Below, piece after piece: positions 42,248 through 56,287 of a stretch of 64,000 bases of DNA (positions are counted from its first letter, which is position 1; the number at the start of each line of letters is the position of its first letter). Both the position numbers and the translations under genes were made by a program. This DNA comes from a virus: IMG/VR virus record IMGVR_UViG_3300033145_003233, positions 124,001 to 188,000 of that record; one strand, given 5' to 3'. The notes beneath the pieces are model-generated. The model ran no database searches, had not been told where the DNA came from, and saw nothing but the letters and a program-made list of their open reading frames with translations.

Positions 42248-42760
42248 TTATTTCGGTGGAACATACTCATAAACTACAACATCAATACCATTCTCAAGCC
42301 ATATTTCCCTGATGAGTTCAAGGATGAAGTCCCAGTTGCCCTTTGCCAAATCACTGCCGAATTTAGGACAATGTATGACAGGTTTCGCATCATTTTGGCC
42401 ATAATTATCCTCGCAAAAGAAACGGACTCTTAACATTGCTTCTGATAAAGCCCAATATTTGACGGGTTTAGGATTATCCTGGTGAACTGTTCCGTGTTGA
42501 CCTATCATATTAACTACAACAATCTGATCCTCATTATTCATTTCTTGAACATGAGCAAAAGAAACAAACCCAAGAGTCAAAGATTGCATTTTATAAACAT
42601 CTTCTACTAAAGGCCATTTCTCTTTCAGTGCAAGTGCTACTCCCTTTCCCATAATCCCGAGATCATTACAGCAATGAGGAATGATTACTACTTCATTCTT
42701 ATTTGTGATCCAGGGGTTTGTTACATCACCCTGTACTACTTTTAGTTTTCCTTGTTCCAT
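42248..42760 (-). CDS. Macro-domain protein (ADP-ribose binding/hydrolysing)
   Basis: 170 aa. KVVQGDVTNPWITNKNEVVI, IPHCCNDLGIMGKGVALALK and KWPLVEDVYK match the macro domain: GDVT at the start, N-D-x-G-x-M-G-x-G-V-A binding loop at about 33-45, and VVNMIGQHGT. Poa1p/Appr-1''-pase-like members remove phosphate or ADP-ribose from ADP-ribose derivatives (family knowledge). Together with the PARP at 46126 it could reverse ADP-ribosylation. AAAGGAG before ATG. Confidence 0.88.
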   Translation of the reverse strand: MEQGKLKVVQGDVTNPWITNKNEVVIIPHCCNDLGIMGKGVALALKEKWPLVEDVYKMQSLTLGFVSFAHVQEMNNEDQIVVVNMIGQHGTVHQDNPKPVKYWALSEAMLRVRFFCEDNYGQNDAKPVIHCPKFGSDLAKGNWDFILELIREIWLENGIDVVVYEYVPPK

Positions 42761-43218: not shown

Positions 43219-43812
43219 TTAGACCGCTTCGAGGGTGATTTTGTTAGCCGATACATCGACTGTTACCCGAACCTTCTTAGAGGATATACCTCTTTGAGCG
43301 ACACCGAGTCGGACTCGACCGTCTTTTTCGGGTTTACGGCAATGCAATGTGCCGTTGATTTCGATGTCATAGCTCCCACCTGTAGCATCGACCTTATCCA
43401 ACAGGGTCTTAGCGATGTTTATGCGACCGCCAGCCGCAATAGTATAAACATCGGAGTCGGTGCTGCCTGAGCCGACTGCATCTTCCAACTCATCATCATC
43501 GTCAGCATCGAGTGCGGGTGCGGCAGGTTTGATAGCAAGGGGATGGTCATAAGGGCTTTTGCCATGAGGGTAATACACCAAAACGACAGGGTTATTCGTA
43601 ACGTCCAACTCTACCGGGTCCCTGTTATAATTGCCCATTGCTCCGGTGCGGAACTCATTGACAACTATATCGCGAACGTCTTTGAGCAATACGGTTTCTG
43701 AGGTCGCTTTGCGAGCTGCTAACGTAACATCGAAAGCTGTAAAAATCTCAGAATTAGAGACCTTTACCCCCAAACAATCCAAAGTTTCTTGAGCTACTGT
43801 CACTGTACACAT
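43219..43812 (-). CDS. 197 aa protein of higher GC, own transcription unit
   Basis: Not recognised. CTVTVAQETLDCLGVKVSNS start, an acidic alanine-rich stretch (APALDADDDDELEDAVGSGS), then YTIAAGGRINIAKTLLDKVD and KKVRVTVDVSANKITLEAV. Codon use is richer in G and C than the neighbours. Flanked by its own promoter and terminator with AGGAGAAA before the ATG, like 31825..32502: both may be abundant proteins (inference). Confidence 0.78.
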   Translation of the reverse strand: MCTVTVAQETLDCLGVKVSNSEIFTAFDVTLAARKATSETVLLKDVRDIVVNEFRTGAMGNYNRDPVELDVTNNPVVLVYYPHGKSPYDHPLAIKPAAPALDADDDDELEDAVGSGSTDSDVYTIAAGGRINIAKTLLDKVDATGGSYDIEINGTLHCRKPEKDGRVRLGVAQRGISSKKVRVTVDVSANKITLEAV

Positions 43813-44654: not shown

Positions 44655-46058
44655 TTATAATTTCCATTTGTATTCCATAGAAGGAACAGGACAACTACCT
44701 ATAATATCATAGAAAAGAGAGGATTGAGATTGATAAACTCTTATTCTATGTCTTTTGTAATATTCTCCCTTATATTTGTAACTATAAGGGAATACTTTAC
44801 ATATTTTACCATATTCTTTATCAATTTTTTCAACAATCATCTGTTGATTATCTTTTGTGAAACATTCACTACATAGAATTATTACAACCTGTTTGGTGCT
44901 ACTATTTTTTCTTCTCTGATAACTCGTTCCATCATCCATAAACCAATTCAACAAAGAAACAGGAGAAATATCTATATCTTCTGGAATCACTTTTTTATAA
45001 TTGTTCCATTCGGGATACCATTTTCTATATAACGGTTTTAATTCTTTATGAGACAAGCTCCTGATAGAGTATGCAGTATAAAATTCTTTTTTAAATCCCC
45101 ATTTTTTACTAGGAAAAGAAATCTCTTTTTTAATCTTCATTCTATTTTTATTAAAAATTTGTTTATAAACATACTCTATATGATCTTTACCAATATTCTT
45201 TTTATAAAAACGAGGATTAGATATATTACTCTTTCTATTATATACCCCTAAACCTGCATCCCCCAATAAAGAACCTTCTATTACAGGAATATTAAAAATA
45301 AAGCCATCTTCTTCTCTATTGCAAGTTAGCCCCTCACTGATATTCCTTACATTAATATTATGACGTAGAAGAGACTGTCTAGCAGAGTTAGGAGTCTTTG
45401 CCCCGCATAACTTTGTTATATTTCTGGTGCTACATTTTTCTTCAACATATTTTTGTTCTAACCATTCTTTATCATTCAATAATTCATAATAAAAAGATTT
45501 AGAAACTACATAGCGACGAGCTTCTCTATTATCTCTGATTTTTATATCAAATTTTCTTAATGCCCTTATTACGTTTCCACTATCACAACCTATCAATTTT
45601 GCCATCTGTTTAGATGATTGAGTCTCTTCAATATATTTTTGACATAACCATTCTCTACTTTCTAGCTCCTTATATTTAGATTTATATTCTTTTAATTTCC
45701 CAGCTTCGCTAATAGTTCTTGTAGAAATATTATGTCTTTTAAGTGCTGTAAATACTGATTTTTGATTAGAATTAGCTAACTCTGCTACTTGATAAGAGGT
45801 AAGTTGCTCTGTTATGTATTTCTGATAAAGCCAGTCTTTGTTATTTAGTTTTTCTGCTTTAAATTTTTTCTTGCCTTTTCTTTTTTTCGCAGCAGAAGAA
45901 CAATTACGAACTTTTATATCAAATTTTCTCAAACATCTTAAAACACTGCTAGGATTAACTCCTATTTCTTTGCCAATATCAACGGTGGATAATTGATCTG
46001 TTGTATACTTTCGAAAGAGCCAATCTTTATCATTTAAATACTTATTTGGTAATGCCAT
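44655..46058 (-). CDS. LAGLIDADG homing endonuclease with four HTH-like repeats
   Basis: 467 aa. Four tandem repeats of about 55 residues (W-L-x-x-K-Y...S-x-x-x-I/V-A...L-R-x-F/H-x-I-x-x-R) at about 8-55, 73-115, 130-175 and 195-240 read as winged or simple HTH modules. Then EGSLLGDAGLGV and LLNWFMDDGTSY, two LAGLIDADG-type motifs. The repeats probably extend DNA recognition (inference). Its stop TAA starts the TAATTTTCCAGACA element. TATATTATG start region is AT-rich. Confidence 0.84.
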   Translation of the reverse strand: MALPNKYLNDKDWLFRKYTTDQLSTVDIGKEIGVNPSSVLRCLRKFDIKVRNCSSAAKKRKGKKKFKAEKLNNKDWLYQKYITEQLTSYQVAELANSNQKSVFTALKRHNISTRTISEAGKLKEYKSKYKELESREWLCQKYIEETQSSKQMAKLIGCDSGNVIRALRKFDIKIRDNREARRYVVSKSFYYELLNDKEWLEQKYVEEKCSTRNITKLCGAKTPNSARQSLLRHNINVRNISEGLTCNREEDGFIFNIPVIEGSLLGDAGLGVYNRKSNISNPRFYKKNIGKDHIEYVYKQIFNKNRMKIKKEISFPSKKWGFKKEFYTAYSIRSLSHKELKPLYRKWYPEWNNYKKVIPEDIDISPVSLLNWFMDDGTSYQRRKNSSTKQVVIILCSECFTKDNQQMIVEKIDKEYGKICKVFPYSYKYKGEYYKRHRIRVYQSQSSLFYDIIGSCPVPSMEYKWKL

Positions 46059-46125: not shown

Positions 46126-47430
46126 TTATTTCCCAAATTCTAATAAATATTTAAAATTAGACTGAGAAGGTCTATATACAATAAACTCATCATTTAATAT
46201 CCCACTAACACTAGCTTTAGCCCAAGTGCTATCGTAACCATTTTTAGGAAAGCTTCCCCATCTATCAGTAGGGGTATAGCATTTCCCCATAGCTACATCT
46301 GTAATAAATAAAAAACATCTATTATTATGAGAACCGTCCCAATATCCATAACTATAATTTAAACTTTTAGTTGAAGATGAGGCAAAATAACATCCTCTAC
46401 CAAAAAGGGATCCAGTAACATGGACAGAAGCAGCGGGAGGAATTATTAATCCCTGACGAAGTATACTCAAAATATGATGGCTGCGTGTTCCATGATAAAG
46501 ACTTTTAATATTCCCAACATTTTTCCCATCTCTTTCAAATGCCTCTTCCATTATATTTATAGAAACAGTATAAACAGTTTTTAGTTTTAAATGATTGCAG
46601 GAATGAGATCTTCTACGAGTTTTATTTATTTTTTCACTTATTTTGTCAATAACTTTTTTGTCAGTAACTATTTTCATTCCAACATTAAAAATTTGTGGAG
46701 TATCATCTTTTTTAGTTTTTTTCTTTTTCTTTTTAGGAGCAGCAGCGGTTGTAACTCCTACAAAAGAGGCGTCCAACCCATCTAATAAATCATTCTCTTG
46801 TTGAACAGTTGAAAGGTCAGGGAGTATATCTTCCGGAGACATTCTACTCCTGCCAAAATCTCTTGGAATAAGAGAAAGATACTCATTAAGTGCTTCCTCA
46901 ATATCCCAATTATCATCTGCTATTTCATCGGATATACTGCTTAAAAGACTTCGTGCTCTTGCCACTTGTGCAGGAACAACTACGCCCTGTGTAGTTCTAA
47001 ATTGTGCGGTGCTTGTATCATAAGTAATCCTCCCTTTTGTTGCTGTTAATATATTATGAGCATTAACATCAACTAAGTAATCAACCAGTTTTTGAACAAG
47101 AGGGTTTGAGTGCTTAATCTGCTTGCGTGCTATGGCTTTTATATCACCATTTCTTACTGAGGCTGTAGTAGCTGCTCCTGTTACTGTCCCGCTTCCTTCT
47201 ACAACTTCATTTTCTATGTAACCCTTTTTCTCTTTTGACCTAATCTTAGTCTCCATAAAAGAGCGACCTTCTCCATACCATGTTTTGCTTTGGGTGCTTG
47301 CTGAATGCCCCTGTCTCCCCCACTCACTCATTACATCGTCATTATCATAGAGAGTAACATTCCAATACTTGTTAGCGTTATTCCCTAAATTGGTAAGGCT
47401 AAATTTTTTGTGTTCAACTACTGTCGGCAT
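46126..47430 (-). CDS. WGR-PARP fusion: ADP-ribosyltransferase
   Basis: 434 aa. Residues about 8-75: NKYWNVTLYDNDDVMSEWGR, then SKEKKGYIE, a WGR domain. Middle helices 90-200 resemble the PARP regulatory region. A lysine-rich linker (PKKKKKKTKKD) precedes the catalytic domain: SLYHGTRSHHILSILRQGL (His of H-Y-E), GRGCYFASSSTKSLNYSYGY (Tyr), NDEFIVYRPSQSNFKYLLEF (Glu). PARPs transfer ADP-ribose from NAD to protein, DNA or RNA (family knowledge). A phage copy could modify host targets or phage DNA, or manipulate NAD-based defence (inference). Confidence 0.9.
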   Translation of the reverse strand: MPTVVEHKKFSLTNLGNNANKYWNVTLYDNDDVMSEWGRQGHSASTQSKTWYGEGRSFMETKIRSKEKKGYIENEVVEGSGTVTGAATTASVRNGDIKAIARKQIKHSNPLVQKLVDYLVDVNAHNILTATKGRITYDTSTAQFRTTQGVVVPAQVARARSLLSSISDEIADDNWDIEEALNEYLSLIPRDFGRSRMSPEDILPDLSTVQQENDLLDGLDASFVGVTTAAAPKKKKKKTKKDDTPQIFNVGMKIVTDKKVIDKISEKINKTRRRSHSCNHLKLKTVYTVSINIMEEAFERDGKNVGNIKSLYHGTRSHHILSILRQGLIIPPAASVHVTGSLFGRGCYFASSSTKSLNYSYGYWDGSHNNRCFLFITDVAMGKCYTPTDRWGSFPKNGYDSTWAKASVSGILNDEFIVYRPSQSNFKYLLEFGK

Positions 47431-47581
47431 TCTCTGCGTCCTTTAATCTTTGGTTTTCTGTCATATGAGATATTGCTTTTATACAAATTTCATCTGTATC
47501 GGCTGGTAATCCTAAATCTTCGAGCATCGCTGCCCAAATTACCTTACTCTTACAATCTTCTTTATATATTGTTCCATTCAT
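47414..47581 (-). CDS. Small helical protein before the PARP gene (short gene)
   Basis: 55 aa: NGTIYKEDCKSKVIWAAMLE, DLGLPADTDEICIKAISHMT. Strong promoter TTGACG/TATAAT and AAGGAAAAG upstream; its end overlaps the PARP start by 17 bases, so the two are coupled and may act together (inference). Confidence 0.75.
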   Translation of the reverse strand: MNGTIYKEDCKSKVIWAAMLEDLGLPADTDEICIKAISHMTENQRLKDAENADSS

Positions 47582-47594: not shown

Positions 47595-47623
47595 ATTATA
47601 ACCTATTTTCTACCTTACGTCAA
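47595..47623 (-). promoter_or_regulatory. Sigma70 consensus promoter of the PARP operon
   Basis: TTGACG, 17 nt, TATAAT: the closest match to the sigma70 consensus in the window, 14 bases before the short gene. A CCAGACA box at 47636..47647 lies just upstream without its own -10. Confidence 0.78.
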
Positions 47624-47647: not shown

Positions 47648-47686
47648 AATAACTTAATCCTTCTTTCACTTTCAAGTGTTATTTAA

Positions 47687-47758
47687 CAGGTCGCTAGGGG
47701 TACGATCCCTAAACTGAACTTTTGGAGAGTCCTGTGATGCCAATTTCACCAACGACCT
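47687..47758 (-). tRNA. tRNA-Trp(CCA)
   Basis: Anticodon arm GGACT-CTCCAAA-AGTTC; acceptor AGGTCG/CGACCT; T arm with GGGATCGTACCCC. No encoded CCA end. Confidence 0.88.
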
Positions 47759-47762
47759 ATAA

Positions 47763-47837
47763 TATCCCCGGAAGGACTTGAACCCTCACAAACCCAGATT
47801 CGTAGTCTGGTGCTCTGTCCATTTGAGCTACGGGGAC
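47763..47837 (-). tRNA. tRNA-Arg(ACG)
   Basis: Anticodon arm CCAGA-CTACGAA-TCTGG, T arm GGGTTCAAGTCC, acceptor GTCCCCG/CGGGGAT. Confidence 0.92.
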
Positions 47838-47843
47838 AATAAA

Positions 47844-47917
47844 CGCCCATAGTAGGACTCGGACCTACATTTTTCGCCTTAGGAGGGCGATACCTTATCC
47901 ATTTAGGCTATATGGGC
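47844..47917 (-). tRNA. tRNA-Arg(CCT)
   Basis: Anticodon arm TCGCC-CTCCTAA-GGCGA, T loop TCCGAGT, acceptor GCCCATA/TATGGGC. Confidence 0.92.
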
Positions 47918-47930
47918 ATATAAACAAAAC

Positions 47931-47953
47931 GCTTCTAGTGACAAACTAGAAGC
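47931..47953 (-). terminator. Terminator-like hairpin
   Basis: GCTTCTAGT, TTGTC, ACTAGAAGC followed by GTTTTGTTT on the minus strand, between the small gene at 48019 and the tRNAs. Confidence 0.65.
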
Positions 47954-48018
47954 ACATCGTTTGTAGAAGTCCTAATCTCAACCAAAAGGTTGCAAATTAG
48001 CAAATTTTATTAAAAAAC

Positions 48019-48246
48019 CTAGTTACAGGTCTCATCCCCAAATAGTTCTCGATCTTCTGATTCGTCTAAAGTAGCTTTTTGCAAAAAAGCAAAAGCAGCT
48101 AAAATTATAATTGATATCTCTTCATCATTCTTAGCTCCATCTATCAAGATATTTTCTAATCTATCAAGATATTTTCTTGCTTCAGCCCAACTTTCATTGA
48201 CAACTCTTTCACATCTGATCCTATATAAATCTTCTTTTTTAGCCAT
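48019..48246 (-). CDS. Small helical protein, 75 aa
   Basis: AKKEDLYRIRCERVVNESWA, DEEISIIILAAFAFLQKATL. Helical, CTAAGG before ATG. Not recognised. Two hairpins follow it before the first tRNA. Confidence 0.74.
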   Translation of the reverse strand: MAKKEDLYRIRCERVVNESWAEARKYLDRLENILIDGAKNDEEISIIILAAFAFLQKATLDESEDRELFGDETCN

Positions 48247-48372
48247 CCTTAGATCCCCACAAATAATATAAAAGAACTAGTCAAATATGTAACTATTAAA
48301 AATATAACAACTAATTAAACACTTTCAAGAAAAATCTTATAAATATTATATTTTTTTATATTAGGCCATAAA

Positions 48373-48403
48373 AAATGCCCAACCTATAAAAAGCTGGGCA
48401 TTT
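48373..48403 (-). terminator. Intrinsic terminator after 48422..48862
   Basis: AAATGCCCA, 13-nt loop, TGGGCATTT with continuing T run on the minus strand. Confidence 0.85.
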
Positions 48404-48421
48404 GATAGCTCTTAACTAGAG

Positions 48422-48862
48422 CTAAGCAGCGGAGGCAGGGATCTTCCTGCGCTTCCTTTGCCCGCTTTTTTGGAGAACAAAAACTCCTCGACTGGTTTTT
48501 TGTATCTTCCTGTCTCTATTGAGCTTGTTGTTCACCATGGTGTAAAATAGTCGGCTATTCGTGTGGTACAAATCCTGTTTCCGTATTGAAGATAGGACAT
48601 CCTGCATCGTCATCTTCTTACCAGGAACCATACTTTTTCGAATTGCGTCTCTCAAAATGACTGTATTATGCATCCTCGGCACATAACTCTTTATCCCCGC
48701 TGACTTAGAATTACGAGCTAAATAACGGGAAAGCCTTCTTTGCACCTTAGAGATCTGACGATCCATCTGTTCTTTCTGCCTTAGCAAGTCCTGTAAAGTT
48801 TGATAGTAGGCCTCTTCAGTTCTTACCGAGGCGTCCTTTCCCACTTTCTTCGTCTTCGGCAT
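48422..48862 (-). CDS. Basic winged-helix-like protein (HARE-HTH-like)
   Basis: 146 aa from the Met at 48862 (GGGAG 9 nt upstream). Coiled coil at 14-48 (TLQDLLRQKEQMDRQISKVQ), then LRDAIRKSMVPGKKMTMQDV, LSSIRKQDLYHTNSRLFYTM, VNNKLNRDRKIQKTSRGVFV: the plan of the HARE-HTH winged helix (start helix, xDVxxxI, SxxxxVxxxLxxxxxFxxxxRGxxxL). Less AT-rich codons than neighbours, perhaps acquired. Probably binds DNA. Confidence 0.78.
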   Translation of the reverse strand: MPKTKKVGKDASVRTEEAYYQTLQDLLRQKEQMDRQISKVQRRLSRYLARNSKSAGIKSYVPRMHNTVILRDAIRKSMVPGKKMTMQDVLSSIRKQDLYHTNSRLFYTMVNNKLNRDRKIQKTSRGVFVLQKSGQRKRRKIPASAA

Positions 48863-49111
48863 TTTAAAAACTCCCAAAAAAGAAACTAATTTAGTTAAAC
48901 TATACGATAGTCTAGACAAGTATTAATATAACAGATTCTTGTTAGTAGTTCAACTCTTTTCTCTATTTTTCTATCATAGATTATGGATAGGAAATAAAGA
49001 AAATAGATATAACTTGTTAGTCTATAGGAAGTTATGTAAAATGATAAAAGTGGAAATATATTTTATTTTTTGCTAAAGTTTCTTGACAATAGATCCGAAG
49101 AATAATAAGTT

Positions 49112-49154
49112 CTAATTAAATATCCCCGGTAGGACTCGAACCTACAACATCCAG
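49112..49154 (-). tRNA. Truncated tRNA, 3' half only
   Basis: Only TGTAGGTTCGAGTCCTAC and CGGGGAT remain (T arm plus acceptor 3' strand). The 5' half is replaced by the end of gene 49156..49368, whose stop lies in the fragment. Pseudogene. Confidence 0.7.
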
Positions 49155-49155
49155 C

Positions 49156-49368
49156 TTAGGAAGACATTCTAGTAAGTTTCCATTTTTGAATTTTTTTCTC
49201 CATTTTTTCTTCAGCTTCTTCTTTATCTCGACCCCAAGTTTCTCCGAAATCATCTTCTATTTTAGCATCATTACAATACATAGATTGGACTTTGGTAACA
49301 TAATAATATCTATTGCCAATTGGTGGTAACAATTCTCGACTATCTATATAATATTCATACTTATTCAT
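49156..49368 (-). CDS. Hypothetical protein, 70 aa, fused into a tRNA remnant
   Basis: NKYEYYIDSRELLPPIGNRY, GRDKEEAEEKMEKKIQKWKL. GGGAGAACATA precedes the ATG. The last codons and stop are formed by the tRNA 3' half. Not recognised. Confidence 0.68.
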   Translation of the reverse strand: MNKYEYYIDSRELLPPIGNRYYYVTKVQSMYCNDAKIEDDFGETWGRDKEEAEEKMEKKIQKWKLTRMSS

Positions 49369-49397
49369 TATGTTCTCCCTTGATTATACAAATGAAA

Positions 49398-49474
49398 CAC
49401 CTCAGGTAGGGATCGAACCCACATGTGTCCATTTACCCTTTCATCTGCTTAGAAGGCAGAGGGGATACTGAGGC
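49398..49474 (-). tRNA. tRNA-Arg(TCT), abnormal: no D arm
   Basis: Acceptor GCCTCAG/CTGAGGT, anticodon arm TCTGC-CTTCTAA-GCAGA and T arm GTGGG-TTCGATC-CCTAC are sound. Only seven bases (TATCCCC) stand where the D arm should be, while about 21 bases follow the anticodon arm, including GGGTAAATGGACAC. TATCCC may pair with GGGTA to lengthen the anticodon stem. Confidence 0.7.
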
Positions 49475-49479
49475 AAAAC

Positions 49480-50172
49480 CTAACTTTTTACCCATTTTCT
49501 TATTGAGTTATCAGAAACACCATATTTCCTACCAACAGCACAATAGTTAGTTTCTTCTATTTCTTGTAACAACCGTTCTTTAGACGGTCTATTTTTAACT
49601 TTTCTTTGTTCTATATCGACACAGTTTTTACACATATCTAATATAGAATATTTTTTTATTTCTTTTCCACATTTTTTACAATTATGCTTTTTTCTATTTT
49701 TTCTTCCAGCAAAAGTTTCTTGTTGACTATTGCAATTAGGACATAATAATCTTAAATTTTCTAATCTATGATCATTATTAACTCCATTTATATGATCTAA
49801 AACCATTACTAAATTTTGATTGTTATGAATTGGTAATTGATTACAAATAACACATCTATTTTCTAACATCCCATTTTGTAATAATCTTTTTTTAAGATTT
49901 CCTCTATCATAAGTAGAATTCTCTATCATAGCCTCTTTCAAAGGAAGAGATCTTTCTGGAAATTTTCTGTTTTTATTACTATTTAAACCTAGAGATATAT
50001 GAGAATAATCGATACTTTCTTCATCCAGTCTTTTTTTTAAAGCCTTATAATTACTACCTGCTATAACTAAATCAAAATACCTAATAATGGCAGCAATGCT
50101 ATCACTTTTAGCAACTATATTCTTTAATTCTTCGGTAGATATGCCCCAGATTATACTTGTTCTTTTTCTCAT
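49480..50172 (-). CDS. HNH homing endonuclease with terminal HTH
   Basis: 230 aa. N-terminal helical DNA-binding part (EELKNIVAKSDSIAAIIRYF), CVICNQLPIHNNQNLVMVLD, HINGVNNDHRLENLRLLCPN CNSQ core with catalytic D-H-I-N-G, a second zinc site CKKCGKEIKK...CKNC, and a C-terminal HTH (NYCAVGRKYGVSDNSIRKWV). A free-standing homing endonuclease between tRNA genes. The TCGAATATATAGATAG signature precedes it and TATAGGAGA is the ribosome site. Confidence 0.9.
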   Translation of the reverse strand: MRKRTSIIWGISTEELKNIVAKSDSIAAIIRYFDLVIAGSNYKALKKRLDEESIDYSHISLGLNSNKNRKFPERSLPLKEAMIENSTYDRGNLKKRLLQNGMLENRCVICNQLPIHNNQNLVMVLDHINGVNNDHRLENLRLLCPNCNSQQETFAGRKNRKKHNCKKCGKEIKKYSILDMCKNCVDIEQRKVKNRPSKERLLQEIEETNYCAVGRKYGVSDNSIRKWVKS

Positions 50173-50278
50173 CTCATTTTCTCCTATATAAATAACTTCT
50201 ATCTATATATTCGAGATAAAAGCCAGGACTCCTTTAATAAAATATTATATCCTCCTAATAAATAATAGAAATAAAAAA

Positions 50279-50350
50279 TACTCCTACAGAGAATCGAACT
50301 CTGATCTTCAGGGCGAAAACCTAATATCCTAACCGTTAGACGACAGGAGC
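50279..50350 (-). tRNA. tRNA-Glu(TTC)
   Basis: Anticodon loop TTTTCGC, T arm AGAGTTCGATTCTCT, acceptor GCTCCTG/TAGGAGT. Confidence 0.88.
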
Positions 50351-50354
50351 AAAA

Positions 50355-50436
50355 TGCGGCTGAGAGGAGTCGAACCTCCACGCCTTGCGGCACAAGATTC
50401 TAAATCTTGCGTGTCTGCCAGTTTCACCACAACCGC
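50355..50436 (-). tRNA. tRNA-Leu(TAG)
   Basis: Anticodon arm CAAGA-TTTAGAA-TCTTG, long variable arm, T arm GGAGGTTCGACTCCTC, acceptor GCGGTTG/CAGCCGC. Confidence 0.92.
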
Positions 50437-50441
50437 TTAAA

Positions 50442-50513
50442 TACGGGATACCGGACTCGAACCGATAGCTCCGACTTGGAAGGACGGCATGTTACCAATT
50501 ACACCAATCCCGC
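50442..50513 (-). tRNA. tRNA-Gly(TCC)
   Basis: Anticodon loop CTTCCAA, T arm CGGTTCGAGTCCG, acceptor GCGGGAT/ATCCCGT. Confidence 0.9.
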
Positions 50514-50520
50514 TTAATTT

Positions 50521-50646
50521 ACAGATAGGTAAGGATTTGCACCTTACAATTCTAATTTAGGGATGTTAGAATCTAACACGGGCAGGATAAATTAACTACC
50601 CCTTAGCACCCACATAATATTTACCTATTTCACCACTACCTGTCTA
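50521..50646 (-). tRNA. tRNA-like gene with internal insertion, about 125 nt
   Basis: Acceptor AGACAGG/CCTATCT (one mismatch), Leu-like D arm (GTGGTGAAATAGGTA), and T arm TAAGG-TGCAAAT-CCTTA are visible. Between D arm and T arm there are about 80 bases, with hairpins GGGTA/TATCC and GTGTTAG/CTAACAT. Either an intron-like insertion in the anticodon arm or a decayed class II tRNA. Anticodon not assigned. Confidence 0.5.
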
Positions 50647-50647
50647 A

Positions 50648-50718
50648 AGGCCGATGAGGGAATCGAACCCTCTTACACACTTTTGCAGAGTGCGACCTTG
50701 CCAATCGGACAATCGGCC
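50648..50718 (-). tRNA. tRNA-Cys(GCA)
   Basis: Anticodon arm GCACT-CTGCAAA-AGTGT, T arm GAGGGTTCGATTCCCTC, acceptor GGCCGAT/ATCGGCC. Confidence 0.92.
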
Positions 50719-50722
50719 ATGG

Positions 50723-50793
50723 GGTGATCGAGGGAATTCGAATCCCTACTCGCAGGATCACAACCTGCTGTGCTGCCATTACACCACGACCAC
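50723..50793 (-). tRNA. tRNA-His(GTG)
   Basis: Anticodon arm GCAGG-TTGTGAT-CCTGC, acceptor GTGGTCG/CGATCAC, discriminator C as usual for His. Confidence 0.9.
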
Positions 50794-50795
50794 AA

Positions 50796-50871
50796 TGCCA
50801 GAAGGTGGATTTGCACCACCAAGACCTCTCGGCCACAGTTTTACAGACTGCTTGGCTCACTAATGCCTGCC
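50796..50871 (-). tRNA. tRNA-Tyr(GTA), acceptor partly mismatched
   Basis: Anticodon arm GCAGT-CTGTAAA-ACTGT, long variable arm, T arm GGTGG-TGCAAAT-CCACC. The acceptor GGCAGGC/TTCTGGC pairs at only five of seven positions. Confidence 0.78.
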
Positions 50872-50880
50872 CTGACGGAA

Positions 50881-50954
50881 TACCCCCACCTGGAATCGAA
50901 CCAGGAACTCAAGGTTAAGAGCCTAGTATTTTCCCAATTAAACTATAGAGGCGC
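50881..50954 (-). tRNA. tRNA-Lys(CTT)
   Basis: Anticodon loop CTCTTAA, T arm CCTGGTTCGATTCCAGG. Acceptor pairing is imperfect, near the HNH gene that starts two bases away at its 5' side. Confidence 0.82.
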
Positions 50955-50955
50955 A

Positions 50956-51462
50956 TTAAAAGTTAAATAGATTCCTATAATAATTAGGATCCTTCATTTT
51001 TATCTCATCTTCTATTTCTATATGGCAATTTGAACAATACATATCACATTTATTAAATTCTTCAAGTATTGTCTCCCATTTTTTCGACCAAAGATTATTA
51101 ATTGTTAATCCAAAATTCTTTTGAGAAGGATCTCGATGATGAAATACCAATGCTTTAACATTCTTTTTATATCCACATCTTTTACAAGAGCCTCCCGCTT
51201 TTGCTACTAATTCTTGCTTTTTATTCCATCCTCTTTTATATATATTCCCTCTATGTTTTTGTTTAGATTCTTCACTCCAACAATAATAAGGCCCTTTTTT
51301 CTTAGCAGGACGACTAGGATCATCAGATTTTGTATTATGACCTCTATAGGGAGAACATTTTAAACAAAATTTTCTATTTCCAAGGTTCTTATTTTTTCCA
51401 TCAATTTTTGTCCAGTGAGGGATATATTCCCCACATTTTCTGCAATCTCTTTTATTACTCAT
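50956..51462 (-). CDS. HNH homing endonuclease with two zinc sites
   Basis: 168 aa. CRKCGEYIPHW and CLKCSPYRGHN near the start; CKRCGYKKNVKALVFHHRDP, then KCDMYCSNCHIEIE, the HNH core. Same family as 54154..54630. It ends 1-2 bases from tRNA-Lys. TATAGGAGATATGC gives its ribosome site; GAATATATCTTC lies upstream. Confidence 0.9.
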   Translation of the reverse strand: MSNKRDCRKCGEYIPHWTKIDGKNKNLGNRKFCLKCSPYRGHNTKSDDPSRPAKKKGPYYCWSEESKQKHRGNIYKRGWNKKQELVAKAGGSCKRCGYKKNVKALVFHHRDPSQKNFGLTINNLWSKKWETILEEFNKCDMYCSNCHIEIEDEIKMKDPNYYRNLFNF

Positions 51463-51554
51463 TGCATATCTCCTATAAAATAACTCTTATAGAAGATATA
51501 TTCTGTAACTTAATTAAAACTCCTCTTTCTATTTACTTTTTAAGTTACAATGAA

Positions 51555-51639
51555 TGAGGGTAGGAGGATTCGAACCTCCAGCGTCCTTACGGATCCGGGT
51601 TAAAAGCCCGGTGCAGCCTACCGTATCTGCAACACCCCC
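51555..51639 (-). tRNA. tRNA with UUU anticodon but class II variable arm
   Basis: Anticodon arm CCGGG-CTTTTAA-CCCGG reads TTT (Lys), T arm GGAGG-TTCGAAT-CCTCC, D stem GCAG/CTGC. The variable region contains TCC-GTAA-GGA, a class II feature typical of Leu, Ser and Tyr, not Lys. Charging identity uncertain. Confidence 0.75.
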
Positions 51640-51649
51640 TATATTTTAC

Positions 51650-52150
51650 CTGATTTCTCTTGTTTTCGTTTCATGAGAATTTTCCTTTCTATTCTCTTTA
51701 AGAAGAATAATTAAATTTGAACAACTAACTCCTCCAGCCGCAAAACCCATACTAAACCAAAAGAGAGGATGAATTAGTCAATTACCTCCACCATAAAGGT
51801 GGAGGCTTGTAATTAGCGTCAGGATGACGCTACTACAATAGGCTGATTGACATCAGCCTTACTAAGGTAACATATAGTATCTTAGTAATGTTCTTTAACT
51901 AATTATAAGGATTCACTAATTACAACCGTTAACTCTAATTTAGAGTGTCTTACCTGCCGTAGGCAGGAAAGTGACTTATAAGGGCCTGTGAGTTTTACTT
52001 TAACAAGATTTGTTAAAAACTCCATACTCTTAACTTTAAAAAGAACTATTATATAATTCGTCAGAAAGTAGTTAAAACCTTTAAGAAAATGATAATTTTA
52101 GAAAAAATAAGTTTTGAGATACTTCGTCAGCCTTTGGCTGACTTAATGTC
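51650..52150. other. Noncoding stretch of 500 bases rich in hairpins
   Basis: No ORF, between a tRNA and the gene 52151..52291. Clear hairpins on either strand: CCTCCACC/GGTGGAGG (51785-51805), GCGTC/GACGC (51816-51830), GGCTGA/TCAGCC, CTTACTAAG/CTTAGTAAG region, CCTGCC/GGCAGG and GTCAGCC/GGCTGAC. Could be a large structured RNA or the remains of a palindrome-ended mobile element. Strand not decided. Confidence 0.55.
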
Positions 52151-52291
52151 TCATTCCTCCCCTCCCACAAGAGAAGGGGTTTCCTGAGACCCGATTAATG
52201 AAGACACAAAAATAGCTGTAACTCCTATTGTAATAAGACTACTAAACATAACAGTACTTATAAATAAAGAAATAATTCGTTTCCGTTCCAT
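52151..52291 (-). CDS. Single-span membrane mini-protein (short gene)
   Basis: 46 aa: ERKRIISLFISTVMFSSLIT, IGVTAIFVSSLIG, then QETPSLVGGEE. Basic start and one hydrophobic span. AAAGGAG in the end of the gene before is its ribosome site. Its last codons lie in a CCCCTTCTC/GGGAGGGG hairpin bordering the noncoding stretch. Confidence 0.72.
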   Translation of the reverse strand: MERKRIISLFISTVMFSSLITIGVTAIFVSSLIGSQETPSLVGGEE

Positions 52292-52292
52292 A

Positions 52293-52580
52293 CTAATCTC
52301 CTTTCTTCCATAATTTTTGTAAAAATCTTATTATTTTATTAGAAGGTTTTTGAGCTTTTATCACCTCTACTATATCTGTTATATTCTTTTTTTGTCTAAA
52401 AATCTTATCACATTCTGGACAATATCTTTCGTGCAAATGAGTTTTCATTCCCCAACAAGATATAGGGATTTTTGTATGCATAGTATTTTTATTACCACAT
52501 AAAGGAATATTCCCCTCAGCAACATGATAGAAAAAACTGCTATGAATACTTTCTCTTATAACTAAATCTTTTTCACTCAT
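52293..52580 (-). CDS. Zinc-site hypothetical protein, 95 aa
   Basis: CGNKNTMHTKIPISCWGMKT and RYCPECDKIFRQKKNITDIV; histidines and cysteines suggest zinc. C-terminal basic helix (NKIIRFLQKLWKKGD). Not recognised. Confidence 0.75.
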   Translation of the reverse strand: MSEKDLVIRESIHSSFFYHVAEGNIPLCGNKNTMHTKIPISCWGMKTHLHERYCPECDKIFRQKKNITDIVEVIKAQKPSNKIIRFLQKLWKKGD

Positions 52581-52759
52581 AGATCTTCTTCTTTAATTTC
52601 TTTGCCTTTACAAGTAAAAATAATTACATCAGTTAATAATGGACAATCAGGAGGAAGATCATTATAGCTAGATGCTGTTTTTGTAATATTACATCTTGGA
52701 CCAGAAACCCCATATCCTTCTAAGAAACATTCTCCACAATTTTCTACTTCTATTTTCAT
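52577..52759 (-). CDS. Cysteine mini-protein of the DLPPDCPL type
   Basis: 60 aa. CGECFLEGYGVSGPRCNITK, then NDLPPDCPLL: CxxC...C...CPL as in many small phage proteins. ATGA overlap with the next gene. Confidence 0.78.
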   Translation of the reverse strand: MKIEVENCGECFLEGYGVSGPRCNITKTASSYNDLPPDCPLLTDVIIFTCKGKEIKEEDL

Positions 52760-53269
52760 TTATTCTAATCCTTTCTTTACTACATCCCAATCTATATGAC
52801 TCCATTTCTGATCTTTTGATTGTTCTAATAATGACTCAGCTCTTTTATTCCCATATGATAAGATTCTTTCAGCATGTTCTTCCGGTGTTATCTTCTTAGG
52901 TGCTTTATAAGGAGGAAGGCCTAAAGCCCTATTTATCTCAGGTTCTTTTTTGAGAGGTGCTCGTGCCTTTTTTAAGATCTTCTCTTTCTCTTCCTTTTCA
53001 TCTTTTTCTTTTTTCGCCGAAACAAAATCAAAACCACACCCTGGGCATTTCTTTGTAACTCCTCCTATAATGATGTTACATTCTGGGCATTTCTTTCTTC
53101 CTTGTCCCAAAGATGTATAAATTTTAGGGGCTACTACCTTATTCTTTTCTTTTAAAAGATCTTCTCTTATCTGTTTTGTGGGGAAATGATATCCACAACT
53201 ACAAAGAGAACTTCTTGCTCCTAATTCGGTGTGACAATTAGGACAATCTTTTTTACCTCTACCTGACAT
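52760..53269 (-). CDS. Double zinc-ribbon protein
   Basis: 169 aa. RGKKDCPNCHTELGARSSLC then SCGYHFPTK; second ribbon CPECNIIIGGVTKKCPGCGF; charged linker; C-terminal helices ITPEEHAERILSYGNKRAES. The GKKxCPxCxxxxGxRxxxCxCGYxF block is known from phage proteins, function unknown. A 140-base leader with GATATTAG/CTAATATC precedes it. Confidence 0.8.
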   Translation of the reverse strand: MSGRGKKDCPNCHTELGARSSLCSCGYHFPTKQIREDLLKEKNKVVAPKIYTSLGQGRKKCPECNIIIGGVTKKCPGCGFDFVSAKKEKDEKEEKEKILKKARAPLKKEPEINRALGLPPYKAPKKITPEEHAERILSYGNKRAESLLEQSKDQKWSHIDWDVVKKGLE

Positions 53270-53413
53270 TGTTAATCTCCATTATTATTCGGTGCTAATA
53301 AGATAGATATTAGTCCCTACAGGAATGGTAGTTCATCCTAATATCTACACTATTTCCATTATAACTTGATTGATAGGGGCTATAAGTCCCTAGGTCATAA
53401 TGACCATCTTCAA

Positions 53414-53446
53414 TCTAATATAATGAAAAAACAGTTGTCTGGAAAA
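53414..53446 (-). promoter_or_regulatory. CCAGACA-type promoter element
   Basis: TTTTCCAGACA, 16 nt, ATTAGA; overlaps the last codons of 53415..53924. It leads to the structured leader of 52760..53269. Confidence 0.65.
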
Positions 53447-53924
53447 TAAATGGAAATTCTGCTTTTAAATCGTTTCTAAAAACAGTATTATATTTAAAAT
53501 TAGTGGTAAGAATGATAACAGGTATTATTATGTATATGGATACAAATAGAATAAGAGGAAAAAAGTTGTCTCCTTTCTTTTTTTTATTATCATAACAATT
53601 ATCTCGAAAACATATTATATTCCATAATAATAAAAATACACAAAATATTGTATATAAAACCCAGGCTGTCTCATCGTCCATAGGCAAATCCCCCGGAGAA
53701 TCGATCCAGCTAATAACAGGCAACCAACTCCCACATAAAAAAGATACTATTATAGCTCCTATAATAGATCCCTTAAATAAGCTATAATAGTATTTCATTT
53801 CTCCTTTTACTTCATTAGCCATTATTCTTCTACGTTTGATTTTCTCCGCTTCTTTAAGGATCTTTGCTTCTTTAAGGATCTTTCTAACTTCTCTTACATT
53901 TTTTTCCCACCAGCTCTCACTCAT
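53415..53924 (-). CDS. Membrane protein reading through a promoter element
   Basis: 169 aa. Charged N-terminal coiled coil (VREVRKILKEAKILKEAEKI), then hydrophobic spans at about 53-70, 88-105 and 122-140. The last residues FPFIFQTTVFSLY are encoded by the CCAGACA element. Start could be the Met at about 53819 (ANEVKGEMKYYY). Confidence 0.74.
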   Translation of the reverse strand: MSESWWEKNVREVRKILKEAKILKEAEKIKRRRIMANEVKGEMKYYYSLFKGSIIGAIIVSFLCGSWLPVISWIDSPGDLPMDDETAWVLYTIFCVFLLLWNIICFRDNCYDNKKKKGDNFFPLILFVSIYIIIPVIILTTNFKYNTVFRNDLKAEFPFIFQTTVFSLY

Positions 53925-53973
53925 GCTCTTATCCCCATTAAATTATTATTTCATAAATAGTTATTCATCCTAT

Positions 53974-54006
53974 ATAGTTATTATAGAAAAACAATTGTCT
54001 GGAAAA
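53974..54006 (-). promoter_or_regulatory. CCAGACA-type promoter element
   Basis: TTTTCCAGACA, 16 nt, AACTAT; weak -10. Follows tRNA-Met directly. Confidence 0.6.
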
Positions 54007-54011
54007 TTAAA

Positions 54012-54087
54012 TGGGTCCTCTTGGATTTGAACCAAGGATATCCAAGTTATGAGCTTGGTGCTTTAGGCCAGGCTAAGCTAAGAACCC
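54012..54087 (-). tRNA. tRNA-Met or Ile2 (CAT)
   Basis: Anticodon arm CCAAG-CTCATAA-CTTGG, T arm CTTGGTTCAAATCCAAG, acceptor GGGTTCT/AGGACCC. Confidence 0.9.
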
Positions 54088-54094
54088 AAAGAAG

Positions 54095-54167
54095 TGGTAC
54101 TCCCCGGAGTCGAACCGGGTCCTCAAGATTTTCAGTCTTGCGCTAAATCCACATCAGCTAGAGCACC
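54095..54167 (-). tRNA. tRNA-Phe(GAA)
   Basis: Anticodon arm CAAGA-CTGAAAA-TCTTG, acceptor GGTGCTC/GAGTACC. Its first 14 bases are also the last codons of the HNH gene 54154..54630. Confidence 0.92.
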
Positions 54168-54630
54168 TTTTTTGTAGATAATGAACTTCTGCATGACAAT
54201 TCTTACAGAGTAAATCACACTTTTTAGCTTCTTTCTCGAGTCTCTCCCATTTCAATAACAAACCCGAATTGCTAATTGACATCTCTTTTTCTTCTGGATC
54301 TCTATGATGAAAATCCATACTAGCAATACATTTATTATATCCACATTTTATACATTTACTTCCCTGTAACTCTATTAGAGCTTTTTTTCTTTCTTCTCTT
54401 TTATTTTTTTGATAAGACCAATATTTTTTTCTATTGTTATCTTTTTTTCTTCTGTTTTTATTGATCTCGAATTCTTGGAAAGTTTCTCCATATCTACACA
54501 GCTTAGCATGATTCCCACTCCCAAAAGGAGAACAATTAAGACAATATTTTCTCCTTTGCATATTCCTTTGTTTTCCATCAATCTTGACTTTAGTTTTAAA
54601 TTCTTCTCCGCATAATTTACATGTTTTCAT
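54154..54630 (-). CDS. HNH homing endonuclease ending inside tRNA-Phe
   Basis: 158 aa. CKLCGEEFKTKVKIDGKQRN, CLNCSPFGSG, then CIKCGYNKCIASMDFHHRDP and KCDLLCKNCHAEVH, the HNH core. Ends QKRCSS, encoded by the 5' part of tRNA-Phe. Upstream sequence has the TATCGAATATATC signature. Confidence 0.9.
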   Translation of the reverse strand: MKTCKLCGEEFKTKVKIDGKQRNMQRRKYCLNCSPFGSGNHAKLCRYGETFQEFEINKNRRKKDNNRKKYWSYQKNKREERKKALIELQGSKCIKCGYNKCIASMDFHHRDPEEKEMSISNSGLLLKWERLEKEAKKCDLLCKNCHAEVHYLQKRCSS

Positions 54631-54710
54631 TTTTATACCTAGATTAACAGTCGCTCTAGATATATTCGATATAATAGCTCAAAAACCTTTAATTAATAAA
54701 AACTGTTTTA

Positions 54711-54782
54711 AGCTCCCTGCCGGAATCGAACCGACTTTTCTGGAGTACGAAACCAGTAGATCACCATTTATCCTTAGGAAGC
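54711..54782 (-). tRNA. tRNA-Thr(CGT)
   Basis: Anticodon loop TTCGTAC in CTGGT...TCCAG (one mismatch), T arm GTCGGTTCGATTCCGGC, acceptor GCTTCCT/AGGGAGC. Confidence 0.82.
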
Positions 54783-54784
54783 AA

Positions 54785-54856
54785 AGCCGATGAGAGGAGT
54801 CGAACCCCCATTCCCTGATTACAAAACAGGTGTCTTAGCCATTAGACGACAGCGGC
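54785..54856 (-). tRNA. tRNA-Thr(TGT)
   Basis: Anticodon arm CCTGT-TTTGTAA-TCAGG, T arm with GGTTCGACTCC, acceptor GCCGCTG/CATCGGC (one mismatch). Confidence 0.86.
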
Positions 54857-54888
54857 ATGATTAAAAACTTTTACCTTCAGCATATCTT

Positions 54889-55458
54889 TTATAATTTATC
54901 TAGCATTTCTCTTGGAGTTAAATGAAAAAAAGAAAAAACCCATTTTCCATTTTTTAAATATAAATGTCTTTTTACATGACAATTCTTACAAATTATTTCA
55001 AAATTTTCCATAACATTATTTGTTCTATCTTTATCTTTATGATGAACTTCCAAAAGATACTCTTTATCTTCTGAACATCCTTCACAAACAGGATTTATAT
55101 GATTTTTTATTAACTTTCTATATATCTCCCTACCTTGAGATGTTCCATAATGAGAAGGTCTTATTTCAGGACAATTCCCTTTTAGACTTTGTGATTTTTC
55201 TTTACATTTCCTTGAGCAAAAATGGAAACCATATTTTGAATTTTTAAGCTTAGATGGAGGTCTTTCTATCTTATTATTACAATTATAACAATAAACCGTA
55301 ATCCTATTTTTACGACTTATATCATGACATTTTTTATTACAATATTTTTTAGGCTTAGAAGCATTTTTTCTTCTTAAAAATTCTTTTCTACAATATTTAC
55401 AACTATGTTTTTCTGCTCTTCTTTTTTCCCCAGATTCCATAATAAATAATTGTTCCAT
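54889..55458 (-). CDS. HNH homing endonuclease with zinc-finger N-terminus
   Basis: 189 aa. CKYCRKEFLRRKNASKPKKY, CNKKCHD, CYNCNNKIERPPSKLKNSKY, then CEGCSEDKEYLLEVHHKDKD and MENFEIICKNCHVKRH, the core. Two or three zinc sites before the HNH part read the DNA (inference). Ribosome site TATAGGAGA; GAATATATAATAG signature upstream. Confidence 0.9.
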   Translation of the reverse strand: MEQLFIMESGEKRRAEKHSCKYCRKEFLRRKNASKPKKYCNKKCHDISRKNRITVYCYNCNNKIERPPSKLKNSKYGFHFCSRKCKEKSQSLKGNCPEIRPSHYGTSQGREIYRKLIKNHINPVCEGCSEDKEYLLEVHHKDKDRTNNVMENFEIICKNCHVKRHLYLKNGKWVFSFFHLTPREMLDKL

Positions 55459-55541
55459 TTAAATCTCCTATAAAATAGATATCTAACTATTATATATTCA
55501 ATATAAATGGGAGGAATCCTTCATTGCATTGCAAATTTTAA

Positions 55542-55613
55542 TGGAGACTGAGGGTTATGATCCCTCTACTGAACTTTGCAAGAGTTCTGTGATACCCGAT
55601 TTCACCAAGCCCC
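55542..55613 (-). tRNA. tRNA-Ala(TGC)
   Basis: Anticodon arm GAACT-CTTGCAA-AGTTC, T arm GAGGGATCATAACCCTC, acceptor GGGGCTT/AGTCTCC with a mismatch. Confidence 0.85.
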
Positions 55614-55617
55614 CAAA

Positions 55618-55641
55618 GTAGCACCGCCTAAGCAGTGCTAC
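55618..55641. repeat. Hairpin between tRNA genes
   Basis: GTAGCAC and GTGCTAC arms, 7 of 7 paired with a 10-base loop. May aid processing or termination. Confidence 0.5.
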
Positions 55642-55644
55642 GTT

Positions 55645-55775
55645 TGTAGATGTGTGTGAGCAAATAAGGATTTAGCGTGCTGCCATTACACTATAGGATT
55701 GATCTCTCAATCCTAGCAAGATTCGAACTTGCTCTGCTCGTTCCGTAGACGATAACTTATTCACATTCAACCTAC
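55645..55775 (-). tRNA. Circularly permuted tRNA candidate (Arg ACG-like)
   Basis: On the minus strand an anticodon-like arm (TCGT-CTACGGA-ACGA), a T arm (GCAAG-TTCGAAT-CTTGC) and the acceptor 3' strand TAGGATTG come first. After six bases (AGAGAT) the acceptor 5' strand CAATCCTA and a D arm (GTGTAATGGCAGCAC) follow. The eight acceptor pairs are perfect. The outer flanks TGTGAATAAG and CTTATT...TCACA can also pair. This is the order of a permuted tRNA; whether it is processed is unknown. Confidence 0.6.
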
Positions 55776-55779
55776 GTAA

Positions 55780-55854
55780 TCGGAGTATCCGGATTTGAAC
55801 CGAAATTATTCCTGGCCCCAAACCAGGTGCCATACCAAATTAGGCGATACTCCG
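55780..55854 (-). tRNA. tRNA-Pro(TGG)
   Basis: Anticodon arm CCTGG-TTTGGGG-CCAGG, T arm TCGGTTCAAATCCGG, acceptor CGGAGTA/TACTCCG. Confidence 0.92.
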
Positions 55855-55863
55855 TATAATTAA

Positions 55864-55936
55864 TCTGGGCGGAAGGATTTGAACCTTCACCCCCTGGCTC
55901 CAGACCAGGAATGCTGCCAAGTAACACTTCGCCCAG
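55864..55936 (-). tRNA. tRNA, Pro(TGG)-like with C33
   Basis: Acceptor CTGGGCG/CGCCCAG and T arm GAAGGTTCAAATCCTTC are perfect. The loop TCTGGAG gives TGG at the anticodon positions but has C instead of T at position 33. If the loop is read one base earlier it would be CTG (Gln). Identity uncertain. Confidence 0.72.
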
Positions 55937-55939
55937 GAC

Positions 55940-55980
55940 AGACAAAAACTCCATAGCTATGAAACTATGAAGTTTTGTCT
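55940..55980. repeat. Long hairpin between tRNA genes
   Basis: AGACAAAAACTCCATAG and CTATGAAGTTTTGTCT arms pair almost fully. Likely transcript punctuation between tRNAs. Confidence 0.55.
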
Positions 55981-56002
55981 AATATTAACATTTGTTTAAG
56001 AA

Positions 56003-56077
56003 TTGCGGGAGGTGGATTTGAACCACCGACCTTCAGGTTATGAGCCTGACAAGCTAACCAAACTGCTCTACCCCGCT
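56003..56077 (-). tRNA. Initiator-like tRNA-fMet(CAT)
   Basis: CAGG-CTCATAA-CCTG, D arm AGAGCAGTTTGGTTAGCT, T arm GGTGGTTCAAATCCACC and unpaired first base (A1 against A72) resemble bacterial initiator tRNA, though the three G-C pairs of the anticodon stem are not all kept. Confidence 0.85.
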
Positions 56078-56093
56078 ATGTTTTTAATAATAG

Positions 56094-56204
56094 TGTACAG
56101 GGTAGGATTTACACCTACATTTTTTCACAACAACGATAAATCACTACTGCAAAACGTCTTAAATAGAAAGGCGAACCAAACTACTTTATTAAGACCACCT
56201 GAAC
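56094..56204 (-). tRNA. tRNA-like gene with internal insertion, about 111 nt
   Basis: Acceptor GTTCAGG/CCTGTAC and T arm GTAGG-TGTAAAT-CCTAC are clear. The D region is extended by a GTCTTAA/TTAAGAC helix and no standard anticodon arm can be drawn. Intron-bearing or decayed tRNA. Confidence 0.5.
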
Positions 56205-56208
56205 ATGG

Positions 56209-56280: not shown

Positions 56281-56287
56281 ATAAAAT

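What the first reader, a model, noticed from the sequence alone, without database searches (positions are those of the whole stretch)
46126..47581. Phage WGR-PARP ADP-ribosyltransferase with a coupled small protein
WGR, helical part and a PARP catalytic domain with H, Y and E positions in place are fused in one phage protein, driven by the best sigma70 promoter of the window and overlapped by a 55 aa gene. DNA-dependent PARPs are rare in phages. It could mark phage DNA or host proteins, or act on NAD-based defence.
Basis: partly seen in the sequence, partly recalled or inferred. Interest (0 to 1): 0.85.

Follow-up and report, generated by a model that had tools for sequence, protein, structure and literature searches.

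The report
Phage PARP in conserved ADP-ribose cassette
A giant bacterial virus carries a complete, apparently intact copy of the enzyme type our cells use to sense broken DNA (PARP); such phage enzymes were already known, but in many giant phages the gene sits in a fixed-order cluster with ADP-ribose-removing enzymes and an undescribed, probably DNA-binding protein, which suggests a built-in write-and-erase ADP-ribosylation system.

Summary
Window 46126-47430(-) encodes a 434-aa WGR + PARP-regulatory + PARP-catalytic protein (Pfam, all three above cut-off). Its AlphaFold model matches human PARP1 bound to a DNA break over residues 1-434 (Z 26.7). H313, Y348 and E415 are in place and invariant in 65 aligned relatives. 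The protein is not new as a kind: phage PARPs were reported in 2014 and 2021. The 55-aa overlapping ORF is not a conserved partner, and the 'best' promoter ties with nine others.

The winged-helix family is tied to PARP: 39 of 94 non-redundant PARP loci have it, always downstream on the same strand, and all 25 loci found by searching for it that have enough upstream sequence carry PARP. In 18 of the 94 the order is PARP > macrodomain > NADAR > winged helix; the window carries a reordered variant.

I read it as a DNA-break-activated ADP-ribosyltransferase in a write/erase island. Activity and biological role are untested.

The parts
46126..47430 (-). PARP gene, 434 aa: WGR + helical regulatory domain + ART catalytic domain
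   Evidence: ORF; Pfam; AF2 pLDDT 85.3, pTM 0.81; Foldseek 1.6e-26 and Z 26.7 to PARP1 bound to a DNA break
47209..47403 (-). WGR domain (aa 10-74), W37-G38-R39, N20
   Evidence: PF05406 1.4e-07; G38 in 62/62 and R39 in 59/62 aligned relatives
46768..47097 (-). PARP regulatory / helical domain (aa 112-221); L216 and D217 largely conserved
   Evidence: PF02877 1.4e-06
46135..46647 (-). PARP catalytic (ART) domain, aa 262-432; H313 codon 46492-46494, Y348 46387-46389, E415 46186-46188
   Evidence: PF00644 1.8e-27; HYE invariant in 65/65
47414..47581 (-). 55-aa ORF overlapping the PARP start by 17 nt; not a conserved partner
47595..47623 (-). sigma70-like promoter match, 11/12, one of ten such in the window
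43219..43812 (-). 197-aa winged-helix protein with a low-confidence beta C-terminal part; no Pfam, NCBIfam or significant PHROG match; single copy in this genome; conserved downstream neighbour of phage PARPs
42248..42760 (-). 170-aa macrodomain of SCO6735/BT1257 type (N32, Q88, G90 = SCO6735 N27, Q85, G87); missed by Pfam
   Evidence: DarG models 5e-06 and 3.4e-06; PMC9411070
44655..46058 (-). LAGLIDADG homing endonuclease between PARP and its neighbours; absent at this place in L011; probably an insertion, not part of the system

Best explanation
The gene encodes a PARP1/2/3-type, DNA-dependent ADP-ribosyltransferase reduced to WGR, helical domain and ART domain. Most likely mechanism: the WGR domain binds a DNA break in the infected cell, the helical domain unfolds and opens the NAD+ site, and the enzyme attaches ADP-ribose (mono or poly, undetermined) to itself, to proteins at the break, or to the DNA end. 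In these phages it works inside an ADP-ribosylation island: a SCO6735-type macrodomain and, in many relatives, a NADAR enzyme remove ADP-ribose again, and a winged-helix protein is the linked DNA-binding partner or target. The likely purpose is to mark, protect or repair phage DNA broken by host nucleases or by replication and homing events. Shown here: domain architecture, intact active site, fold, conservation, and conserved gene order with erasers and the winged-helix protein. Inferred: enzymatic activity, DNA activation, substrate, and purpose.
For: Architecture and active site. Full-length structural match to PARP1 on a DNA double-strand break, 368 residues, 1-434 on 542-1007. Bacterial proteins of the same three-domain build are DNA-dependent: H. 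aurantiacus PARP needs DNA and makes long PAR (as reported in PMC4245714), and C. difficile CD160 PARP automodifies with NAD+ and activated DNA (PMC5966428). Conserved neighbourhood: of 94 non-redundant PARP loci, 39 have the winged-helix family, all 39 downstream on the same strand, and 18 have PARP > macrodomain > NADAR > winged helix. Reverse test: of 26 loci found by searching for the winged-helix protein, 25 have PARP upstream and the 26th has only about 0.6 kb of upstream sequence; 14 of 14 whole records searched hold PARP. In the phage collection two of four winged-helix queries matched one record only, LR756511, which carries PARP about 1.5 kb away, and two matched nothing. Macrodomains lie within 6 kb of PARP in 6 of 21 records chosen without regard to macrodomains, against 1.2 expected.
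Against: No activity was measured. The same macrodomain type occurs in 1,218 phage records, most without PARP, so the erasers need not act on PARP's products. SCO6735 prefers thymidine-ADP-ribose over protein-ADP-ribose (PMC9411070) and was reported inactive on 5'-phosphate-linked ADP-ribose (PMC11833690 results); no phage PARP is known to modify DNA bases. 43 of 94 PARP loci show none of the three neighbours within the flank. No PARG was found in this genome, but that search had no positive control. The macrodomain statistic weakens when related phages are merged. The winged-helix C-terminal part has no confident fold.
Confidence: 0.6

Rival explanations
1. Counter-defence island: the macrodomain and NADAR exist to undo DNA ADP-ribosylation by host DarT-type toxins, and PARP is co-inherited because it modifies and disables a host defence protein or signals DNA attack. 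It does not form a writer-eraser pair with them.
For: The macrodomain carries the N/Q catalytic pair of SCO6735, which reverses DarT thymidine modification (PMC9411070). NADARs reverse guanine ADP-ribosylation (PMC11125620 abstract). Both eraser families are common in phages without PARP (PMC9503650). The genome also has a NAPRTase, a NADAR with cREC, and two further macrodomains.
Against: Does not explain why PARP and the winged-helix protein stay together even without erasers (15 of 94 loci are PARP > winged helix only), nor the fixed order.
Confidence: 0.2
2. Host takeover: like T4 Alt/ModA/ModB, the PARP modifies host proteins (RNA polymerase or DNA-bound proteins) to redirect the host.
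For: Suggested for jumbo-phage PARPs by Iyer et al. 2021 (PMC7824862); ARTs are common in such phages (PMC9503650).
Against: WGR and helical domains, typical of DNA-gated enzymes, are retained across the family; not fused to or beside recognisable head genes here.
Confidence: 0.12
3. Toxin-antitoxin-like or superinfection-exclusion module: PARP drains NAD+ or damages DNA of competitors when it senses breaks, and the adjacent macrodomain is the antidote.
For: In one clade a macrodomain gene is directly upstream, ending within about 50 nt of, or overlapping, the PARP start; three of three such macrodomains found by their own search sit next to PARP.
Against: In the window and the larger cassette clade macrodomain and PARP are separated by other genes; no DarT match; bacterial WGR-PARPs are not known as toxins.
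Confidence: 0.08

Closest known systems
Bacterial WGR-PARP_reg-PARP proteins (H. aurantiacus, C. difficile CD160; Variovorax and Leifsonia homologues)
   Same: Same three domains, similar length, same catalytic triad; the Variovorax, Leifsonia and Armatimonadota proteins fall inside the phage clades
   Different: Phage-borne; here linked to a macrodomain and a winged-helix protein, which were not detected beside the three bacterial loci
Phage PARPs already reported: Xanthomonas phage XacN1 BBA65562.1, Cellulophaga phage phi4:1, Aeromonas phage Aeh1, Klebsiella phage FBKp34
   Same: XacN1 and FBKp34 proteins align over 98-99% of the query at 30-32% identity; FBKp34 is annotated WGR + PARP_reg + PARP
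   Different: The XacN1, phi4:1 and FBKp34 loci lack the winged-helix gene within the flanks examined; Aeh1 was not in the hit list
Human PARP1/PARP2/PARP3
   Same: WGR-HD-ART core and active-site residues; full-length fold match
   Different: No zinc fingers, no BRCT; shorter loop before the catalytic glutamate; 23-25% identity in structural alignment
DarT/DarG and DarT-NADAR modules
   Same: Macrodomain (DarG/SCO6735 class) and NADAR erasers near an ADP-ribosyltransferase
   Different: The transferase is a PARP with WGR and HD, not DarT (no DarT match)

Membership tests
DNA-dependent PARP (PARP1/2/3 type, clade 1) | ART catalytic domain with H-Y-E triad | tested here: met
   PF00644 1.8e-27; H313/Y348/E415 aligned to PARP1/2 and invariant
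DNA-dependent PARP (PARP1/2/3 type, clade 1) | Helical regulatory domain (PARP_reg) | tested here: met
   PF02877 1.4e-06 above cut-off; helices in the model
DNA-dependent PARP (PARP1/2/3 type, clade 1) | WGR domain with WGR motif | tested here: met
   PF05406 1.4e-07 above cut-off; W37-G38-R39
DNA-dependent PARP (PARP1/2/3 type, clade 1) | Same domain arrangement in three dimensions | tested here: met
   Z 26.7 over 368 residues to PARP1 on DNA
DNA-dependent PARP (PARP1/2/3 type, clade 1) | Activation by DNA breaks; ADP-ribose transfer; polymer formation | not testable with these tools
   Needs purified enzyme
SCO6735/BT1257-type macrodomain (window 42248-42760) | Macrodomain homology | tested here: met
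   Two-sequence profile: 2afc 1.1e-17, 2fg1 2.1e-17, 5e3b 2.1e-16; Pfam Macro alone gave no match
SCO6735/BT1257-type macrodomain (window 42248-42760) | Catalytic Asn27 and Gln85 with Gly87 (PMC9411070) | tested here: met
   N32 and Q88-H-G90 in the BT1257 alignment
DarTG toxin-antitoxin | DarT-family transferase as the toxin | tested here: not met
   No DarT match for the PARP in PADLOC; it is a Pfam PARP
Winged-helix DNA-binding protein (window 43219-43812) | Winged-helix fold | tested here: inconclusive
   Residues 1-90 modelled at about 90 pLDDT as helices plus a two-strand wing; top Foldseek rows are mostly winged-helix regulators but E is 0.1 or worse

The most novel reading that the evidence does not exclude
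Giant phages run their own DNA-damage-type ADP-ribosylation circuit: a break-activated PARP writer, dedicated erasers (macrodomain and NADAR) and a PARP-specific winged-helix partner, inherited in fixed order. That would be a viral counterpart of the eukaryotic PARP-PARG response, used to protect or repair phage DNA against host nucleases.
Probability: 0.3. Interest if true: 0.88.

Novelty: new variant of a known kind. Interest (0 to 1): 0.62.

Why it matters
PARP signalling at DNA breaks is seen as a eukaryotic speciality with scattered bacterial copies of unknown purpose. A conserved phage cassette with writer, erasers and an apparently exclusive, probably DNA-binding partner gives a genetically simple system in which the purpose of a prokaryotic PARP could be tested. 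It may also reveal how giant phages deal with host nucleases or DarT-type defences.

Tried and rejected
55-aa ORF as partner: one relative only, not adjacent there. Promoter as special: ten-way tie. Single-protein scan of viral contigs with the PARP found nothing; the alignment-based scan found 60 loci. PARG search: none found, but no positive control anywhere. First reverse scans for the winged-helix family found mostly the query's own contigs; the tighter cassette alignment gave the informative test. PDB profile of the winged-helix family gave only AbrB at E 0.38, not used as identification. Nearest relatives by DNA: only tRNA-sized matches in the phage collection, so the host is unknown. 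Proximity of macrodomain and PARP as sole proof of pairing: rejected, because that macrodomain type is in 1,218 phage records. Fold search found no significant solved match for the winged-helix protein; a missing match is not evidence of a new fold.

Full report
WHAT WAS CHECKED. The window is bases 124001-188000 of a 547,943-base virus record. ORF 46126-47430 on the minus strand (434 aa, ATG) matches Pfam PARP (1.8e-27), WGR (1.4e-07) and PARP_reg (1.4e-06), all above curated cut-offs, and PHROG 23333 'polymerase' over nearly its full length (1.5e-57). It is the only PARP found in the record by that Pfam model.

ACTIVE SITE AND FOLD. Alignment to solved PARP1/2 puts H313, G314, Y348, K355, S356, Y359 and E415 on the PARP1 H862-G863-Y896-K903-S904-Y907-E988 set (PARP1 numbering from my own knowledge). 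Across 65 distinct relatives H, Y, E, G314, K355 and Y359 are invariant and S356 is 62/65. WGR residues G38 (62/62) and R39 (59/62) and HD residues L216/D217 are strongly conserved. The position I align with PARP1 H826, linked to chain elongation (own knowledge), holds H in 45 of 47 proteins with a residue there. The loop before the glutamate is short, so poly versus mono transfer cannot be called. The AlphaFold2 model (42-sequence alignment; pLDDT 85.3, pTM 0.81) matches human PARP1 bound to a DNA double-strand break best: Foldseek 1.6e-26, VIA-align Z 26.7, 368 residues, model 1-434 on PARP1 542-1007. So the whole DNA-gated core is there, not only the catalytic fold.

NOT NEW AS A PROTEIN. 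Perina et al. 2014 listed PARPs in phages Aeh1 and phi4:1 (PMC4245714). Iyer et al. 2021 noted PARPs in a few jumbo phages, naming BBA65562.1 of XacN1 (PMC7824862), which is our hit H2. Klebsiella phage FBKp34 is annotated with all three domains. A scan of viral contigs gave 60 loci; together with later scans, known phage records and three bacterial loci there are 137 loci, or 94 clusters at 90% PARP identity. In the tree three bacterial PARPs (Armatimonadota, Variovorax, Leifsonia) fall among phage branches, which points to repeated exchange; roots and deep branches are not secure.

SMALL PROTEIN AND PROMOTER. The 55-aa ORF overlaps the PARP start by 17 nt, with AAAGGA ahead of the PARP ATG, so coupling is plausible here. 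Its only relative is in L011, where it lies 1.3 kb upstream of PARP with other genes between. The promoter is one of ten 11/12 matches in the window against 3-8 in simulated sequence.

THE CONSERVED NEIGHBOURS. Clustering genes around PARP gave two recurrent neighbours. First, macrodomains. The window's is 42248-42760(-), missed by Pfam but found by profile against BT1257 and SCO6735 structures and weakly by DarG models. It keeps the Asn and Gln that SCO6735 needs to remove ADP-ribose from thymidine in DNA (PMC9411070). Within 6 kb of PARP a macrodomain occurs in 6 of 21 records chosen without regard to it, 1.2 expected; two pairs of these are related phages, so the support is moderate. In one clade (L045, L047, L050, L053-L055, L063) a macrodomain gene is directly upstream of PARP.

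Second, a winged-helix family. The window's copy is 43219-43812(-), single in this genome, with no Pfam, NCBIfam or significant PHROG match. In the first set it occurs in 15 PARP loci spread over about seven branches of the tree, always downstream, always on the same strand. Reverse test: searching for the winged-helix protein itself gave 26 loci. 25 carry PARP upstream on the same strand; the other (L106) has only about 0.6 kb of upstream sequence. All 14 whole records searched contain PARP. In 50,697 phage records the family was seen only in LR756511, again beside PARP. These searches reach only moderately distant relatives, so members without PARP may have been missed, and seven of the 26 loci lie on contigs already known to carry PARP.

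THE CASSETTE. In the clade of L041 the order is PARP > macrodomain > NADAR > winged helix, all on one strand (NADAR by Pfam 4e-31 to 4e-36). Starting from PARP in that clade, 21 of 39 loci with a detected PARP show all four in that order, 4 lack NADAR, 2 have PARP > macrodomain > NADAR without a detected winged helix (both near a contig end), 5 have PARP and winged helix only, 7 have PARP only, and none has another order. Over all 94 clusters: 18 full cassettes, 15 PARP > winged helix, 4 PARP > macrodomain > winged helix, 2 PARP > winged helix > macrodomain (the window and L011), 7 macrodomain > PARP, 2 with macrodomains on both sides, 2 PARP > macrodomain > NADAR, 1 PARP > macrodomain, 43 PARP alone. 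The winged helix is downstream in 39 of 39, at 1 to 4,722 nt. These totals are enriched by searches that began from the cassette. In the window phage the NADAR is elsewhere (record 381,571, next to a cREC gene), and there are two more macrodomains and a nicotinate phosphoribosyltransferase. I found no description of this PARP cassette in the papers read (PMC9503650 section 3.7.1; searches); the library is open-access only.

MECHANISM. Shown: architecture, active site, fold, conservation, gene order. Inferred: DNA-break activation (from PARP1 and the bacterial enzymes of PMC4245714 and PMC5966428), ADP-ribosylation of itself, nearby proteins or DNA, reset by macrodomain/NADAR, and involvement of the winged-helix protein as DNA-binding partner or target. 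Main rival: the erasers serve against host DarT-type toxins, since the same macrodomain type is found in 1,218 phage records while PARP was found in only 17. I give the DNA-break-activated write/erase reading 0.6 and the fullest form of it (a dedicated phage DNA-damage circuit) 0.3.

VERDICT.

Noticed in passing
window 936-10708 (-): Twelve consecutive ORFs of about 250-290 aa that overlap by a few bases, looking like a tandem array; the three tested have no PHROG match.
   Followed up: partly
window 47686-59550 (-): 27 tRNA genes on one strand interleaved with small ORFs, starting just upstream of the PARP gene.
   Followed up: no
window 44655-46058 (-) and 49480-50172 (-): A LAGLIDADG endonuclease with repeated helix-turn-helix segments and an HNH endonuclease flank the PARP region; the former seems inserted between PARP and its downstream neighbours compared with L011.
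   Followed up: partly
L079 3922-4422 and 5643-6995 (record about 43.9-47.0 kb): Another macrodomain near a nicotinate phosphoribosyltransferase in the same phage genome, a possible NAD-related cluster.
   Followed up: partly
L080 3181-4039 (record about 381.2-382.0 kb): NADAR gene overlapping a cREC (cyclic-phosphate receiver) gene, domains that Iyer et al. discuss together in jumbo phages (PMC7824862).
   Followed up: partly
L081 6194-7126 (record about 519-520 kb): ORF whose start reads like a patatin-type phospholipase (from memory); strong match to PHROG 25573 of unknown function.
   Followed up: no
L056, L057, L058: PARP split into a short WGR ORF and a separate HD-ART ORF.
   Followed up: no
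records of L094 and L096: A second PARP about 11 kb from the cassette PARP in the same contig.
   Followed up: no
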